Below are positions 1-7,040 of a stretch of DNA of 64,000 nt, piece by piece. A program made the translations under genes and the position numbers. The notes under the pieces were generated by a model. It was given only the letters and a program-made list of their open reading frames with translations. It had not been told where the DNA came from and searched no databases. Positions within the stretch are counted from its first letter, which is position 1. Each line of letters opens with the position of its first letter. Origin of the DNA: Phytohabitans houttuyneae (lineage in GTDB: Bacteria > Actinomycetota > Actinomycetes > Mycobacteriales > Micromonosporaceae); NCBI RefSeq assembly GCF_011764425.1, contig NZ_BLPF01000001.1, positions 124,001 to 188,000 of the forward strand, given 5' to 3'.

Positions 1-582
1 GGCGAGGCGGGCGGCGAGGCGGCCCTGGGTGCGCTGGTACGCGGAGACGACCGCCGCCGTCTGCCGCGTGAACGCCCGCAGCACGAGCCCGACCAGCGCG
101 AGCCCGGCCAGGAACACGAGGGCCAGCCAGGGGTCGATGAGGGTCAGCAGCACCAGCGCGCCGGCCGGCGGCAGCAGCGCGGTCGCGACGGAGATCGTTA
201 CAAGGCCGGCCTGTGCGGCGTCCGTGGCGTTGCTGGAGACGCGGCTGACGAGGTCGCCGGCGTCGAACGCCCGTCCGGCCCTCGGCCCGACCGCGAGCGT
301 GTGCCGGACCAGGCGGTCGCGCAGCCACGCGGTGACGCCGGCGCTGTTGGCCGCGCCCGCGAACGCTCCGCCGACGTCGGCGAGCATGCTGAGCAGGATG
401 AGTCCGCATGCGACAACGACCCAGCGTGCGGTGGACCCGTCACCGGCCACGACCGCGTCGATCGCCCGGCCCAGCACGACCGGCAGGGCGAGCGTGACGC
501 CGGAGCCGACGACAGCGCAAAAGGCGATGACCGGCAGCCAGGCACCACCCTTTCGGACCAGCACGGCGAAGGTCGCCGACAC
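1..582 (-). CDS. ABC exporter permease/ATPase of lanthipeptide cluster (3' end missing)
   Basis: First 194 residues of a type I ABC exporter, running off the window edge before the ATPase domain. After a short cytoplasmic lead come hydrophobic segments (LPVIAFCAVVGSGVTLALPV; WVVVACGLILLSMLADVG), the dispersed pattern of an exporter transmembrane domain. It lies 80 bp behind the lanthipeptide precursor in the same direction, which suggests the RamA/RamB or AmfA/AmfB-type exporter of the peptide. I place the start at the GTG at 582 because AAGGGAG lies 5 nt upstream; an in-frame ATG at 597 lies before this ribosome site. The substrate is inferred from context. Confidence 0.8.
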   Translation of the reverse strand, partial: MSATFAVLVRKGGAWLPVIAFCAVVGSGVTLALPVVLGRAIDAVVAGDGSTARWVVVACGLILLSMLADVGGAFAGAANSAGVTAWLRDRLVRHTLAVGPRAGRAFDAGDLVSRVSSNATDAAQAGLVTISVATALLPPAGALVLLTLIDPWLALVFLAGLALVGLVLRAFTRQTAAVVSAYQRTQGRLAARLA

Positions 583-587
583 ATAGA

Positions 588-594
588 CTCCCTT
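588..594 (-). promoter_or_regulatory. Ribosome binding site deciding the exporter start
   Basis: AAGGGAG on the minus strand, five bases before GTG 582. It lies inside the coding frame if translation began at ATG 597, so it favours the GTG start. Confidence 0.5.
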
Positions 595-604
595 CATAGA
601 AAGC

Positions 605-642
605 CCGCGGCCCGGGCGACCGACATTCGTCCGGGACCGCGG
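605..642 (-). terminator. Stem-loop between precursor and exporter genes (attenuator-like)
   Basis: Imperfect inverted repeat: arms 605-619 and 627-642 pair over about 15 bp with one bulge (CCGCGG...CGA against its complement) around a 7-nt loop. It starts 20 nt after the precursor stop codon, in the 80-bp gap before the exporter. No T-run follows. A stem-loop here could lower read-through so that precursor transcript exceeds exporter transcript, an arrangement known from other lanthipeptide operons; for this site it is inference. Confidence 0.5.
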
Positions 643-662
643 TTCTCACTGGTGCCGCTGGA

Positions 663-815
663 TCAGTTCTGGCAGAGCAGGACGCTCAGGTCGCTCTCGT
701 GGCACAGCGTGACGCTGAGGTCACTTTCGGCGCAGCTCTTGCTGGTGCCGCTGTGGCCGCCGCCGCCGTCGGTCTCGAGTACCTGGGTCATCGCCTGCAG
801 GTCGAGCAGAGCCAT
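663..815 (-). CDS. Class III lanthipeptide precursor (SapB/AmfS-like), 50 aa
   Basis: A 50-residue peptide starting MALLDLQAM. LLDLQ at residues 3-7 matches the leader motif bound by class III LanKC enzymes. A Gly stretch (17-20) precedes the Ser/Cys-rich core. Two near-identical units, SDLSVTLC (31-38) and SDLSVLLC (41-48), each fit Ser-x2-Ser-x3-Cys, the pattern that becomes labionin or lanthionine in SapB and AmfS. A possible third unit, S22-x2-S25-x2-C28, precedes them. GGGAGG lies 7 nt before the ATG. The gene follows lanKC by 17 nt and precedes the exporter, so it should be the substrate of both. The product is probably a surface-active morphogen, by analogy with SapB. Confidence 0.92.
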   Translation of the reverse strand: MALLDLQAMTQVLETDGGGGHSGTSKSCAESDLSVTLCHESDLSVLLCQN

Positions 816-832
816 GGTGATTCCTCCCATTA

Positions 833-3562
833 CTACGGTGTTACCTGACCCGCACCGGTCGGCGCGGGAGACTGTGGGGCCGAGCCGCCTTGCGCTCGCT
901 CCGCTCGCTGAACGTCCAGGGCGCCAGCGCGATCCGGACTCGTCGCTTCGCTCCTCGGACCGGATCTTGCCGGCCCCTGGACGAAGCGCCGCGCGCCCGG
1001 GTGGAGCAGTGGTGCGTGCACCGGCTCGCCGTGCAGCGCGGCGCCGAGCGCCAGCAGCACGCCGGCGGTGCCGGTGGCGAGATCCATCGACAGGCGCATG
1101 AGCGACGTGCCGGGGAAGGCGAACCCGTCGCCGTAGGGCACGGCGTGCCAGCCCAGGTTGCGGACCTGCTTGGCCACTCGCGGGTCGGTGGCCGGGTCGG
1201 CGCTGCGGGCGGCCAGGTAGAGCAGGATCCCGGCGCGGCCCGAGAACAGGCCCGGGAAGACGTACATCGTGGACTGCGCGGCGAGCTCCGCACCCCGTGC
1301 CGCCTCGGCGAACTCGTCGTCGTGGCGCCGCGCGAGGTACTCGTCCAGCGCCAGCCCGACGCCCACGCTGCCCGAGTCGAGGTACGGCATCGTGCGCCAC
1401 CCCTCGTTGACGTGCAGCTCGCCGGTCTCCCGGGTGACGCAGCGGCGCAGGTCCTGCCGCAGGGCCACGGCGGCGTGGTCGAGGTACGCCGGGTCGCCGG
1501 TGTCGTCGAACGCGCGGATCAGCAGCAGCGCCGGACCCGACGAACCCCGCATCAGCCCGGCCAGCGGGTTTTCCCGGCCGCTCGTCTCCGGTACGGAATC
1601 GACGGTGCCGAGGCGCTCGGCGACGAGCTCGGCGGCCCGATGCGCGGCGAGGCGCAGCGCCGGCTCGCCGGTGTGATCGGCGAAGTGCAGCAGGTTGAGC
1701 CCGATTCCCGCGAGGCCGCCCTGCAGGTCCAGGCCGAGCGACTGCCACTCCTCCCGCAGGCACAGGTCGACCGCGTCGAGCGCCGCCTGCCGGTGGCCGA
1801 GGTGGTCGAGGACGAACGCGGCGCCGTGCAGCCCGTCGAAGAGGCCGGGACTCGTCCCGCTCTCCGGCCGGCGCACCTTGGCGAGGAACCACTGCTCAAG
1901 CCGCTCGTCGCGGCCGGCGCCGGTGACCGAGAGCGCGTACAGCACGCCGGCGGCGCCGTGCGACAGGTTGATCCGGCCGCCTTCGGAGAACTGCTGGACG
2001 TCGCCGGGGAAGAGGCGGTCGTCGCGCTCGGGCGTGGCGCTGGCGAGGATCGCGCGGCTGAGGCTGTCGCGCAGGCTCGGCCACGTCGCGGCGAGGTCCT
2101 CCGCGCCGGCCCGCGCGGCCGGCCACGGCGCTGGTGCCGCCGTGCCGGGCGCGATCACCTCGACGCCCTCCGCCAGAAACTCCGGGGGCACAGGGTAGTG
2201 CTCGGCGATGACCTCGGCGTGGTGGTGCACCTTCGGCCGGTGCAGCCACACCATGTTGCTGAGCGGGAGGAACAGCGCGAAGCGCAGGCAGGCCAGGCCG
2301 TACCGGTCGACGTCGACGCCCTTGGTGCCGCGCGGCGGGCTGAAGCCCTGGTTGCCCAGTGCCGGCCGGGTCGCCTCCTCGATCGACGAGGCCACCTCGA
2401 AGTCGAGCAGGAAGGTGCGGTCGTCCTCGGTCACCAGCACGTTGAACATGTGCATGTCGCCGTAGACGAGGCCCCGCTCGTGGATGCCCCGGATCGTCTC
2501 GCTCACCTGCGCGTGGATGCCCAGCGCCCACTCGGTGTAGGCCGCCGCCTCCTCCGGACCGGCGTTGAGGTCGGTCAGCGGGAACCGCCGCACCACGGCC
2601 CGGCTCAGCGGCGTGCCGTCGATGTGCTCCATCGCCAGGAACCGGTGCTCGCCGACCCAGAACAGGTCGTACACCTCGGGGACGCCGGGGACGCCGGCGA
2701 GCCGCCGCAGCACCTCGTACTCCCACTCGACCCGGTCGGCCGCGTCCTTGCCACGGCCGTCGAGCCCGGCGTGCGGGCGGCCCTCCTTCAGCACCACCGA
2801 GCGGCCGGTCGCCTTTTCCGTGCCGACGTAGATGCCGCCGCCGTTGGAGAAGTGCAGCACCCGCTCGATCTCGTACGGCAGGTCGGCGATACTCACCGCG
2901 TTGCGGGCGGCGAGGTGCGGGGCGAGGAAGTCCGGCAGGGTCACCCACTCCGGCACGTGGAACACCGGGTCGCGCCGGTCCGGCACGAGGGTGCCGCTGG
3001 CGTCGGCGATGGCCGGCACGACGGTGCCCCTCGGCCCGACGCAGTAGCGGGCGGCGAAAGCGCCGTACCGCACGAAGAGGGGGCCGGCACCCCAGCGCAG
3101 GTCGCTCAGGATGTAGGGGTTGGGCTCGCCGTCGAGCTGCTCGCCAAGCTCGCGCAGGATCGTGTGGCAGGCGTCGTCGTCGACCGGGTAGATGGTGACG
3201 AGCTTGCCGCTGTAGCCGCGCGGCGCGTACTTGGAGACGCGGCCGAGCAGCGCGCCGGGCGAGCGGAGGAACTTGAAGTCGATGCCGCGGGGAACGCAGT
3301 AGTCCCAGACGGTGTCGAGGACGCGGTCCGCGTTGTCGAGGGTGGCGGAAACGTGGATCTTCCATCCCTGCGGCGGGAGGTCGGTCCGGCCGGAACCGCT
3401 ACGACCCGGGGGTCGGAAGACCCACCAGTCGTCCTGCTCCTTGCGGATCCAGCCATCGGCGAGGGGGCGGTCGGCGGTACGAAACGATGCCTTCGTCGTG
3501 GAGTGGAGAACGTCGTAGAACAACGGACTCGCCATGCAGAACGCTTCGTATCGATCGTCCAT
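833..3562 (-). CDS. lanKC: Class III lanthionine synthetase LanKC (RamC/AmfT-like)
   Basis: 909 residues with the three-part class III layout: N-terminal lyase-like region (about 1-215), kinase region (about 230-480) and a LanC-like cyclase (about 520-870). Kinase marks are the lysine in VVLKEG (K259), the catalytic loop YGDMHMFN (D369) and a metal-binding LLDFE (D387). The cyclase keeps Gly-rich helices (GLFDGLHGAA, GGLAGIGLNLL), but the Cys-Cys-His zinc ligands of LanC are not evident, as in RamC. It would phosphorylate and eliminate precursor Ser residues, then cyclise them with Cys. The last 45 or so residues are low-complexity and encoded by a palindromic element at 913-983, so they are probably not part of the enzyme fold. 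Confidence 0.93.
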   Translation of the reverse strand: MDDRYEAFCMASPLFYDVLHSTTKASFRTADRPLADGWIRKEQDDWWVFRPPGRSGSGRTDLPPQGWKIHVSATLDNADRVLDTVWDYCVPRGIDFKFLRSPGALLGRVSKYAPRGYSGKLVTIYPVDDDACHTILRELGEQLDGEPNPYILSDLRWGAGPLFVRYGAFAARYCVGPRGTVVPAIADASGTLVPDRRDPVFHVPEWVTLPDFLAPHLAARNAVSIADLPYEIERVLHFSNGGGIYVGTEKATGRSVVLKEGRPHAGLDGRGKDAADRVEWEYEVLRRLAGVPGVPEVYDLFWVGEHRFLAMEHIDGTPLSRAVVRRFPLTDLNAGPEEAAAYTEWALGIHAQVSETIRGIHERGLVYGDMHMFNVLVTEDDRTFLLDFEVASSIEEATRPALGNQGFSPPRGTKGVDVDRYGLACLRFALFLPLSNMVWLHRPKVHHHAEVIAEHYPVPPEFLAEGVEVIAPGTAAPAPWPAARAGAEDLAATWPSLRDSLSRAILASATPERDDRLFPGDVQQFSEGGRINLSHGAAGVLYALSVTGAGRDERLEQWFLAKVRRPESGTSPGLFDGLHGAAFVLDHLGHRQAALDAVDLCLREEWQSLGLDLQGGLAGIGLNLLHFADHTGEPALRLAAHRAAELVAERLGTVDSVPETSGRENPLAGLMRGSSGPALLLIRAFDDTGDPAYLDHAAVALRQDLRRCVTRETGELHVNEGWRTMPYLDSGSVGVGLALDEYLARRHDDEFAEAARGAELAAQSTMYVFPGLFSGRAGILLYLAARSADPATDPRVAKQVRNLGWHAVPYGDGFAFPGTSLMRLSMDLATGTAGVLLALGAALHGEPVHAPLLHPGARRFVQGPARSGPRSEATSPDRAGALDVQRAERAQGGSAPQSPAPTGAGQVTP
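913..983. repeat. Nested palindrome in the 3' end of lanKC
   Basis: Outer arms 913-921 (CGTCCAGGG) and 975-983 are exact complements. Inner arms 931-939 (GATCCGGAC) and 958-966 match at 8 of 9 positions. It lies inside the lanKC frame and encodes the odd Ser/Arg/Ala-rich tail of the protein. It looks like a small mobile or REP-type element that inserted near the stop and was read through. No second copy was seen in this window. Confidence 0.5.
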
Positions 3563-3687
3563 CCGGCCACTCGCCTTCGTTCTTTCGTATTGGTGATGCT
3601 CATCCTGACGACTGAGCCGGGCCGCCTCTAGTGCAGACCGTCACCTCTGAACGATGAGGAAGGCGTTTGCTACTCGTGGGTTTTTCA

Positions 3688-3722
3688 CACGCCGATAGTG
3701 GCATTCCCTATCACGCCAATAG
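3688..3722. promoter_or_regulatory. Direct repeats upstream of lanKC, candidate response-regulator site
   Basis: CACGCCGATAG (3688-3698) and CACGCCAATAG (3712-3722) differ at one base and start 24 bp apart, so they face nearly the same side of the helix. They lie 126-160 bp before the lanKC start, in the 171-bp gap after the regulator gene. Tandem sites of this kind suit a dimeric LuxR/NarL regulator such as the neighbouring AmfR/RamR-like protein. Binding is inferred. Confidence 0.45.
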
Positions 3723-3733
3723 GCGTTAGTCGA

Positions 3734-4315
3734 TCAGATCCAGCCTGATTCCTGGGCGATTCGCACGGCTTCGATGCGCGTGCGCGCGCCGACCTTCGCC
3801 ACTACGCGGGACAGGTAGTTGCGGACGGTGCCGGGCGAGAGGTGCAGCCGCGCGGCGATGTCCTTGGCCGGCGACCCGGTGGCCGCGATCTCCAGGATCT
3901 CGGTCTCCCGCTCGGTCAGCGGGTTGCTCCGGTTGAGCGCCGCGACGGCGAGGCGCGCGTCGGCGACCGGCTCACCCCTGGCCAGGCGACGCACACCGTC
4001 CACCACGCGCTGCGGCGCGACGTGGTCGCCGAGGAAACCGCACGGCTGCGCCTGCTGGCGTACCGCGGCCACGAGCCGCCGCGCCTGCTGCTGCGAGGCG
4101 AGGACGAGTGCCGGACAGGCGAAGCGGCGGTGCGGTCCCGCCATCACGCCGAGATCGGTGACGACCACATCGGGCCGGAGGGAGCGGATCAGGGCCGTGG
4201 CGTCGTCGCCGGTGTCACCCTCACCCACCACGTCGATATCGTCCTGCGCGGACAGGACGAACGCGAGCGCACCACGGACGAGCGCCCCATCGAGGATCAG
4301 CAATGTCCGAATCAC
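3734..4315 (-). CDS. LuxR/NarL response regulator of the lanthipeptide cluster (AmfR/RamR-like)
   Basis: 193 residues. The receiver domain (about 1-125) keeps the likely phospho-acceptor Asp in DVVVTDLGV, but is Ala/Gln-rich afterwards. A C-terminal LuxR helix-turn-helix follows (LTERETEILEIAATGSPAKD, then the recognition helix in LSPGTVRNYLSRVVAK). Only one acidic residue is seen near the N-terminus (LILDGA), so the acidic pocket looks reduced, as in atypical regulators that may work without a partner kinase; no kinase is nearby. GTG start. It reads in the same direction as lanKC and is most simply its activator. Confidence 0.87.
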   Translation of the reverse strand: MIRTLLILDGALVRGALAFVLSAQDDIDVVGEGDTGDDATALIRSLRPDVVVTDLGVMAGPHRRFACPALVLASQQQARRLVAAVRQQAQPCGFLGDHVAPQRVVDGVRRLARGEPVADARLAVAALNRSNPLTERETEILEIAATGSPAKDIAARLHLSPGTVRNYLSRVVAKVGARTRIEAVRIAQESGWI

Positions 4316-4429
4316 GCATACCTATCTAGCACACGCACTTGACGACCGCTTGACAAGCGCACCACGCGTGCCTTTTCTCCCCGTTATCCCGCAGTTCGAC
4401 CGCTACCGGGTTTCACGCTGAATGAAAGA

Positions 4430-4458
4430 GGCCCCGGGGTCTAAATACCCCCGGGGCC
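4430..4458 (-). terminator. Rho-independent terminator of the FtsX exporter operon
   Basis: Perfect 10-bp stem (GGCCCCGGGG, 4430-4439, with 4449-4458) and a 9-nt AT-rich loop. On the minus strand it follows the permease stop by about 15 nt and is followed by CTCTTTCATT. It also separates this operon from the lanthipeptide regulator downstream. Confidence 0.8.
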
Positions 4459-4473
4459 CCTTAAACAGGACGG

Positions 4474-7040
4474 TTACTCGTAGGCGATCGCCTGCAGCAC
4501 GTTCAGCCGCGCGGCGCGCCAGGCCGGCCACAGCGCGGCCAGGACACCGGCGATCATCGCGACCACCACGAACACGATCAGGCTGACCCACGGGATAGCG
4601 ACGACGGTGAGGAAGTCGCGGTCGATCAGCGCCGACGACAGCGCCGCGCCCAGCCCGACGCCGACGATGATGCCGAGCAGGCAGCCGAAGACGGCCATCA
4701 CCACGGACTCGGTACCCACCATCCGCATCACGCCGCGGCGGTTGAGGCCGACCGCGCGCAGCAGGCCCAGCTCGCGGGTCCGCTCGAAGATGCTCAGCAG
4801 CAACGTGTTGAGGATGCCGAGCAGCGCGATGAGGATGGCGACGCCCAGCAGCACGTAGATGATGCCGAGCGCGATGTCGATGAAGCTGTTGAACTGGTCC
4901 AGCAACGCCGACCGGTCCCCCACCGTGACCAGCGGGTAGTCCGCCATGACCCGCTCGATGTCGCCGACCACCGTGTCCGGGTTCGCGCCGTCGCGCAGGC
5001 TGACGTAGCCCTGCAGCGCGAGCGGACCGGCGAAGCTGGCCACGGCGTCCTTCGGCAGGATCAGCGTGTCGGTCCAGATCGGCGTCGACTCGTAGACGCC
5101 GACCAGCCGGTACTGCTGCTCGCCGCCCTTGTCCAGCTTGATCGGGACGCTCTGCCCGACCTCCCAGCCGCGCGACTTGAACGTGTTCTCGTCGGTGACG
5201 AACTCGCCCGGCCCCAGCGTGCGCAGATCACCCTCGATCGTCTTCATCGAGAACATGTCGCGCGTCACGGCCATGTCGTCGGTCGAGAACGTGCCGCCGA
5301 ACGGCGGCGCGCCGCCGTCGACCCGCGCTTCGAGGGAGATGTAGAGCGGCACGACCTCGGCCACGCCGGGCACCTGCCGCATCTGCTCCGTGGCGCGGTC
5401 GGGGAAACCGACCTCGCCGGGCGGGCCGGCGGTGGTGTTGGTCTGGACGATGACCTCGGCGCCGACCGAGGCGTTGATGGTCTGGTCGATCGTGCGGGTG
5501 AACGACTCGCCCAGCACGCTCGCCGCGCTCACCAGCGTCACGCCGATCATCAGCGCGGCGGCGGTGACCGCGGTGCGGCGGGGGTTGCGCAGCGCGTTGC
5601 GTACGCCGAGGCGTCCGCTCATGCCCCACCCGACCGCCTTGCCGATCAGGCCGGCGAGCGGCTTGGTCAGCAGCGGCGAGAGGATCACCACGCCGAGGAA
5701 CGCCAGCACCGCGCCGAACAGCAGCGGGGTGAACGACGAGCCGATCAGGCCGAGCAGCAGCAGCGCGAGCCCCGGCACCGCGAACACGAGGCCGACGATC
5801 GTCAGTACCCGCAGCGGCTTGTCCGGGCGGTTGACCTCGCGCATCGCCGCGAGCGGCGGCACCGCGGAGGCCCGGATGGCCGGTACGAACGCGGAGACGA
5901 CCGTGACCAGGATGCCCACCACGTACGCCAGGATCACCGGTGTGGCGCTCACCGTGATGCCCGCGCCCGGCAGCTGCGCGCCGATGAGCGCGGTCAGCGC
6001 GGCGCTGCCGGCGAGCCCGAGACCGATGCCGGCGAGCAGGCCGAGCGTGGAGCCGACCACGCCGACGAGCACCGCCTCGATCAGCACCGAGCCGGTCACC
6101 TGCCCCAGCTCGCGCCCATCGCACGGAAGAGGGCGAGCTCCGAGGCGCGCTGAGCGACCAGGATGTTGAACGTGTTGAAGATCAGGAAGACGCCGACCAG
6201 CAGCGCCACGATCGCGAACGGGCCGAAGAAGTACGTGGTGAGGGCCGAGAGCCCTTCCTGCACGTCGTTGGCCGCGTCCTCGTTCGCCTGGTCACCGGTC
6301 TTGGCCTCGAACCCGCCCGGCACCAGCGGCGCGACCTGCTCGCGCAACTGCTCCTGGGTGACGCCGTCGCGCGCGGCCAGGTACGCGCCGGAGAACAGCC
6401 CCTCCTGCCCGTAGAACGTGCGCTGCGCGAAGCCCTCCTCGAAGAGGATCAGCGTCTCGCCGGCGAGCGAGTCCCGGTCACCGTCGTAGACCACGGTGCC
6501 GGTGATGGTGAACTCGTGCGCCTCGTTCACCTCCGGCAGGAAGATCTTGAGGCGGTCGCCGGTGGCGGAGTGGGTCTGGTCCGCGGTGTACCGGGAGATC
6601 ACGACCTCGTCGTCCGCGGACGGCCACCGGCCGTCCGCGAGCTGGACCAGCGCGAACGGGTCGTCGCCCTTGACCCCGCCGCCGATCTGCGGCGCGCCGG
6701 ACGTGGTCGCCGGCTTGCCGTCCTCGCGGTCGAACGGGATGACACCCATCGCGCTCACGTCGCCGGAGACCGACTGGGCGCCGGGCAGCGCGCCGAGCGC
6801 GTCGATCTGCGCCTGGGTGAGCTTGGGCTGCGGGTCCTCGTCCTGGCCCTCGTCGTTGAGCGCCACCTGGACGTCGACGTTCTGGTTGATGCTCGTGAAC
6901 AGGCGCTCGAAGCGCGCGCCGAGCGAGTCGGTCAGCACGAACGCGCCGGACAGGAACGACACGCCCAGCACGATCGCCACGATCGCGAGCGTGAGGCGCA
7001 GCTTGCGGGAGAAGAGGCTCTTCAGGCTGGCCCGCAGCAT
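4474..7040 (-). CDS. FtsX/MacB-type ABC transporter permease, frameshifted
   Basis: Two reading frames together encode one permease of about 855 aa. 7040-6096 gives the N-terminal membrane anchor (KLRLTLAIVAIVLGVSFLSG), a large extracytoplasmic domain and the start of the first FtsX bundle, ending at ...LFRAMGAS. 6099-4474 resumes with VTGSVLIEAVLVGVVGS and carries the rest of bundle one, a second extracytoplasmic domain and a second FtsX bundle (LGLLRAVGLNRRGVMRM). Bundles are normally continuous here, so one base appears missing around 6099-6112, next to a GGGG run. Split genes overlapping by GTGA are the alternative. It is coupled to the ATPase by TGATG and probably exports a lipid, peptide or drug. 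Confidence 0.85.

What the first reader, a model, noticed from the sequence alone, without database searches (positions are those of the whole stretch)
663..815. Lanthipeptide precursor with two tandem labionin motifs and a possible third
The 50-aa precursor has SDLSVTLC and SDLSVLLC, each Ser-x2-Ser-x3-Cys, like SapB/AmfS. In addition S22-x2-S25-x2-C28 lies just ahead. SapB-type peptides have two such units, so if the third is modified this would be a three-ring-system class III peptide. The near-identity of the two clear units also suggests internal duplication. The chemistry is inferred from motifs.
Basis: partly seen in the sequence, partly recalled or inferred. Interest (0 to 1): 0.72.

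Follow-up and report, generated by a model that had tools for sequence, protein, structure and literature searches.

The report
Three-unit stackepeptin-type lanthipeptide precursor
A soil actinomycete carries a gene for a small ring-bearing peptide of the SapB family with three ring-forming units instead of two; a relative of that kind (stackepeptin) is already described, so this is a new member of a known kind with one slightly odd unit.

Summary
The minus-strand gene at 663-815 encodes a 50-residue RamS/SapB-family precursor, with a Shine-Dalgarno sequence, directly behind a class III synthetase gene (833-3562) and ahead of two ABC transporter genes. It has two Ser-x2-Ser-x3-Cys units (S31/S34/C38, S41/S44/C48) and a third ahead of them with x2 spacing (S22/S25/C28). 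The 'possible third' is not an accident: 30 of 31 distinct related precursors that I read keep it, and the synthetases of 26 of these loci form one clade (SH-aLRT 100). [quoted passage not shown] Three-unit peptides are thus a known kind. Here the third unit is shifted by one residue against the congeners, giving x2 spacing, as in 5 other members. A recent internal duplication is not supported. Whether unit 1 becomes labionin, plain (methyl)lanthionine or nothing cannot be told from sequence. By analogy with SapB, the likely role is a secreted amphiphile for aerial growth, with a polar N-terminal ring and a hydrophobic C-terminal part.

The parts
663..815 (-). lanA: class III lanthipeptide precursor, 50 aa; leader with LLDLQ, core with three Ser/Ser/Cys units
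   Evidence: Shine-Dalgarno GGGAGG
732..752 (-). unit 1, S22-G-T-S25-K-S-C28 (Ser-x2-Ser-x2-Cys), polar; homologous to SSxSGHSC of relatives but shifted by one residue
702..725 (-). unit 2, S31-DLS-VTL-C38 (Ser-x2-Ser-x3-Cys)
672..695 (-). unit 3, S41-DLS-VLL-C48 (Ser-x2-Ser-x3-Cys)
833..3562 (-). lanKC: class III lanthionine synthetase (lyase, kinase, cyclase), 909 aa
   Evidence: NF038151 1078.7 bits, cut-off 575; PF25816, PF00069, PF05147; ThurKC 8sao E 3e-85; the only match over the cut-off in the genome
1..597 (-). lanT1: ABC transporter with fused membrane and ATPase parts, 557 aa, runs off the left end of the window; a second one (lanT2) follows outside
   Evidence: PF00664; full genes in L002 4924-6597 and 3201-5072
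3734..4315 (-). LuxR-type response regulator upstream of lanKC, likely cluster regulator; a paralogue (47.5% identical) lies behind lanT2 outside the window
   Evidence: PF00196

Best explanation
An operon lanKC-lanA-lanT1-lanT2 makes a stackepeptin-type, three-unit class III lanthipeptide. LanKC binds the LLDLQ leader helix, phosphorylates and eliminates Ser residues of the core and closes thioether (and probably labionin) rings in three units; proteases encoded elsewhere remove the leader and the ABC transporters export the peptide (these steps are inferred from the family). The product would be an amphiphile: a small polar ring at the N-terminus (residues 22-28) followed by two hydrophobic ring units (31-38, 41-48), acting like SapB at the surface of the mycelium. 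In this species unit 1 has moved by one residue, so that Ser22/Ser25/Cys28 with x2 spacing, or Thr24/Cys28, replaces the Ser-x2-Ser-x3-Cys of its congeners.
For: Precursor family and synthetase family far over the curated cut-offs. Unit 1 in 30 of 31 distinct related precursors read, 24 with x3 and 6 with x2 spacing; at both unit-1 Ser positions the 27 precursors use both codon families (AGY 20 / TCN 7 and AGY 21 / TCN 6), so the Ser is held although TCN and AGY are two base changes apart. Synthetases of three-unit loci form one clade, SH-aLRT 100, with 22 of 42 rows and 26 of 48 rows. Lyase residues known from ThurKC and the kinase catalytic Asp and DFE motif are kept in the window and in 26 of 26 clade rows. 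The clade includes G348, whose contig length 6841557 equals the published size of S. nassauensis and which has one RamS-family match. Unit 1 is polar and units 2 and 3 hydrophobic in the window (Kyte-Doolittle means -0.70, 1.06, 1.62) and as medians of 20 peptides (-0.64, 1.06, 2.01).
Against: No product was seen. One clade member (L152, genome G136) has lost unit 1, so it can be done without; losses may be undercounted because relatives were found with profiles built from the RamS family or from three-unit peptides and listings were capped. Five of the 31 precursors have no synthetase on the tree. The Asp771 that was proposed as cyclase base in ThurKC is Ser774 here and Asp in only 1 of 26 clade rows. 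In this window the canonical Ser pair of unit 1 is replaced by His21 and Thr24. No protease gene was found in the operon stretch that I read; six M1-family matches lie elsewhere. The morphogen role is by analogy only.
Confidence: 0.7

Rival explanations
1. Unit 1 is cross-linked, but only as a single (methyl)lanthionine (Thr24-Cys28, the ring size of the congeners, or Ser25-Cys28), with Ser22 left as Ser or dehydroalanine; there is no labionin in unit 1.
For: In the ungapped register Thr24 takes the place of the second conserved Ser and His21 that of the first. The Ser-x2-Ser-x3-Cys motif gives lanthionine in some class III peptides and labionin in others (PMC7268733, passage).
Against: Ser22/Ser25/Cys28 keep the Ser-x2-Ser spacing, and x2 to the Cys is the only spacing in a five-genome subclade (SH-aLRT 98).
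Confidence: 0.4
2. Unit 1 is a decayed remnant: not cross-linked, or trimmed off by aminopeptidase, so that the product is a two-ring SapB-like peptide.
For: The canonical pair is broken in this species alone within its genus sample of four distinct precursors; a related genome (L152) lost the unit entirely; AplP-like proteases trim leaders stepwise (PMC10885120, passages).
Against: The substitutions keep Ser22, Ser27, Cys28 and create a new Ser-x2-Ser pair; a free Cys in an exported peptide would be unusual (inference).
Confidence: 0.22
3. Units 2 and 3 arose by a recent duplication inside this gene.
For: SDLSVTLC and SDLSVLLC agree at 7 of 8 residues, the highest value of the 20 peptides compared.
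Against: Both units exist as separate columns in all 27 precursors; 3 of the 7 shared residues use different codons; unit 2 of the window is closer on average to other unit 2s (6.05 of 8) than to other unit 3s (5.42); for unit 3 the difference is small (5.89 against 5.74).
Confidence: 0.03

Closest known systems
Stackepeptin (Stackebrandtia nassauensis; Jungmann et al. 2016, title seen in reference lists, paper not held)
   Same: That this precursor is the stackepeptin precursor is my inference.
   Different: Unit 1 there is SSGSGHSC (x3); here HSGTSKSC (x2). Units 2 and 3 SNLSATLC/SGLSVLIC there, SDLSVTLC/SDLSVLLC here.
SapB/RamS and AmfS (Streptomyces morphogens)
   Same: Precursor profile, LLDLQ leader, LanKC, two ABC transporters, LuxR-type regulators.
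   Different: Two units in SapB/AmfS-type precursors, three here; synthetases of two-unit loci fall outside the clade.
Two-unit precursors with a polar first unit (Actinomadura alba L054; L156 of genome G339)
   Same: First unit S-S-H-S-K/H-S-C has the same x2 spacing and polar make-up as unit 1 here.
   Different: Only one hydrophobic unit follows, after a Gly-rich spacer; synthetases lie outside the three-unit clade.

Membership tests
Class III lanthipeptides, RamS/SapB/AmfS family | Precursor matches the family profile over its cut-off | tested here: met
   PF19402 44.2 of 24.3 bits; NF033212 37.4 of 25 bits
Class III lanthipeptides, RamS/SapB/AmfS family | LanKC gene adjacent | tested here: met
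   833-3562, NF038151 1078.7 of 575 bits
Class III lanthipeptides, RamS/SapB/AmfS family | LLDLQ-type leader and Ser-x2-Ser-x(2-5)-Cys units | tested here: met
   motif definition from passages of PMC11251773
Class III lanthipeptides, RamS/SapB/AmfS family | Lanthionine or labionin in the product | not testable with these tools
   needs mass spectrometry
Stackepeptin-type (three-unit) class III peptides | Three Ser-x2-Ser-x2/3-Cys units in the core | tested here: met
   Spacings 2, 3, 3 in the window; 24 of 30 relatives and self with three units have 3, 3, 3 and 6 of 30 have x2 in unit 1
Stackepeptin-type (three-unit) class III peptides | Synthetase in one clade with that of S. nassauensis | tested here: met
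   SH-aLRT 100 for the clade; quick search, LG+G4, no bootstrap
Stackepeptin-type (three-unit) class III peptides | Three cross-linked ring systems in the product | not testable with these tools
   no product data
SapB morphogens in the narrow sense | Two-unit core | tested here: not met
   three units
SapB morphogens in the narrow sense | Restores or drives aerial growth | not testable with these tools
   no bench data

The most novel reading that the evidence does not exclude
In three-unit class III lanthipeptides the N-terminal polar unit is a separate, evolvable head group on a conserved hydrophobic two-unit tail: it was gained once, lost once (L152), changed its ring register at the base of one subclade and again in this species, and the same kind of polar unit heads unrelated two-unit peptides (L054, L156). 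In this species it would give a third ring system of different size from that of stackepeptin.
Probability: 0.3. Interest if true: 0.45.

Novelty: new member of a known kind. Interest (0 to 1): 0.27.

Why it matters
It settles that the third unit is real and old, gives a family-wide map of three-unit class III peptides in several actinobacterial families, and points to one natural variant (x2 spacing in unit 1) that would test how strictly LanKC enzymes read the distance between Ser and Cys when they choose between labionin and lanthionine.

Tried and rejected
Recent internal duplication was tested and rejected. The idea that three units are new was dropped once the clade with the genome that matches S. 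nassauensis was found. The stackepeptin paper and a class III/IV review were asked for by DOI and are not held. A search of the held papers for core strings of this family (among them SDLSVTLC) and for 'three labionin' and 'Phytohabitans lanthipeptide' found 0 papers; this covers only the held library. No sigma-70-type promoter match was found in 500-4500 and one terminator-like site at 603-617 against 1.0 expected by shuffling, so neither is used. No structure was predicted: the synthetase has solved relatives and the peptide is short. The first tree (42 rows) showed the label as one clean clade; after I added six more loci one member with two units (L152) fell inside it and is reported as a loss.

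Full report
What is there. The minus-strand reading frame 663-815 gives MALLDLQAMTQVLETDGGGGHSGTSKSCAESDLSVTLCHESDLSVLLCQN, preceded by GGGAGG seven bases ahead of the ATG. It matches Pfam RamS with 44.2 bits (cut-off 24.3) and NCBIfam SapB/AmfS with 37.4 bits (cut-off 25). Upstream on the same strand is a class III synthetase, 833-3562, 1078.7 bits to NF038151 (cut-off 575), the only match over that cut-off in the genome (1 of 33 matches). Downstream are two ABC transporter genes, the first of which begins in the window at 597. LuxR-type regulators lie at 3734-4315 and, outside the window, behind the second transporter; they are 47.5% identical to each other.

The three units. Unit 2 (S31/S34/C38) and unit 3 (S41/S44/C48) have the spacing Ser-x2-Ser-x3-Cys; unit 1 (S22/S25/C28) has x2 before the Cys. 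By shuffling, a unit in residues 9-30 appears in 4171 of 200000 trials and three units in 1 of 200000.

Relatives. Within the genus set (6 genomes with the window's own), 4 of 6 have a RamS-family match, and the three others' precursors have SSNSKHSC, SSNSKHSC and SSHSNHSC in the place of unit 1. In the family set 151 of 354 genomes match RamS and 147 of 354 match a profile of the four genus precursors. Listings are capped, and I read precursors only from fetched loci. Of the 52 named loci found in genome contigs, 10 carry three units: Micromonospora sp. CPCC 205371, Actinophytocola xanthii and A. oryzae, Catelliglobosispora koreensis, Actinopolymorpha rutila, Rhizocola hellebori, Phytohabitans maris, two Glycomyces and Amycolatopsis deserti. 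From all loci I picked 27 distinct precursors with three Cys; unit 1 is Ser-x2-Ser-x3-Cys in 24 of 27 and x2 in 3 of 27. Three more three-unit precursors (x2) and one two-unit precursor of the same clade came. In sum 30 of 31 keep unit 1. The 24 with x3 spacing all read SSxSx(H/K)SC.

Selection on unit 1. At its two Ser positions the 27 precursors use AGY 20 and TCN 7, and AGY 21 and TCN 6; units 2 and 3 show the same mixture. Codon families that are two changes apart with an unchanged amino acid speak for selection on Ser.

Synthetase tree. With 42 synthetases (22 from three-unit, 20 from two-unit loci) the three-unit rows are one side of a branch with SH-aLRT 100. With 48 rows the branch holds 26 rows: 25 three-unit and one, L152, whose precursor has two units and lies next to the Glycomyces rows, so it is read as a loss. 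Trees are quick searches under LG+G4 with Streptomyces rows as root. Five of the 31 precursors have no synthetase on the tree. Best-segment identity to the window's synthetase is 58.7-75.1% in three-unit loci and 43.0-57.3% in two-unit loci.

Link to stackepeptin. Genome G348 is one contig of 6841557 bases, the published size of the S. nassauensis chromosome (PMC3035245, passages). It has one RamS-family match, the three-unit precursor of L105. Stackepeptin comes from this species (PMC6429369, passage); [quoted passage not shown] PMC11251773 groups stackepeptin with SapB in a subfamily with 2-3 Cys (Table 2, passage). That the L105 precursor is that of stackepeptin is inference; I recall, but did not check, that stackepeptin has three such motifs.

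What is odd here. Aligned to relatives, the first and second conserved Ser of unit 1 are His21 and Thr24 in the window, while Ser22, Ser27 and Cys28 are kept and Ser25 is new. The peptide thus keeps a Ser-x2-Ser-Cys unit in another register. The same x2 spacing is found in the five-genome subclade at the base of the clade (SH-aLRT 98) and, outside it, in the first unit of L054 and L156.

Enzyme. Eight lyase residues that PMC10604976 (passages) found important in ThurKC, the kinase catalytic Asp and the DFE motif align with identical residues in the window and in 26 of 26 clade rows. The cyclase residue Phe770 is Phe773 here (Phe in 21 of 26), but Asp771 is Ser774 (Asp in 1 of 26 clade rows and in 0 of 22 two-unit rows), so the ThurKC proposal for the cyclase base does not carry over by sequence.

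Make-up. Over 20 peptides the mean hydropathy of unit 1 is -0.64 (median), of unit 2 1.06 and of unit 3 2.01; the window has -0.70, 1.06 and 1.62. This suggests a polar head and a hydrophobic tail; it is inference from composition.

Duplication. Units 2 and 3 of the window agree at 7 of 8 residues, those of 19 relatives at 4-6 of 8; 3 of the 7 shared residues have different codons. Shared descent of old units and local convergence explain this better than a recent duplication.

Verdict. Confirmed observation, partly supported interpretation: a new member of the stackepeptin-type class III lanthipeptides with a shifted first unit.

Noticed in passing
window 876-980: A repeat of about 90 bases with at least 39 matches in the genome, itself included (40 of 130 candidates scored), is inserted in frame in the 3' end of lanKC and adds about 34 residues; Phytohabitans maris (L048 5595-5666) has a copy of the same family, in opposite orientation and 78% identical, in frame at another place of lanKC. 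It folds as a long hairpin (-50.1 kcal/mol for 105 bases). From recall this resembles the palindromic elements in Rickettsia protein genes.
   Followed up: partly
G000:C1:1208850-1209436 (outside the window): Six copies of that repeat in a row with a period of 101 bases.
   Followed up: no
window 3734-4315 and L002 2469-3083: Two paralogous LuxR-type regulators (47.5% identical) lie at the two ends of the operon; of 25 three-unit loci examined, a regulator closest to the first lies upstream of lanKC in L037, L048 and L130 only.
   Followed up: partly
L156 3 kb around 4021-4400, L054 6001-6117: Two-unit precursors with a polar first unit (HSSHSxSC) and a Gly-rich spacer before a single hydrophobic unit; L156 has a second, different precursor just upstream.
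   Followed up: no
L152 around 3726 (minus strand numbering of the script): A Glycomyces-clade locus whose precursor has lost unit 1 (MALLDLQGMESKDELSNDKGKDSNLSVTLCDGTSRLSVLLCE).
   Followed up: partly
L022, L023, L028, L060 and others: Micromonospora loci carry two or three near-identical two-unit SapB-like precursors in tandem.
   Followed up: no
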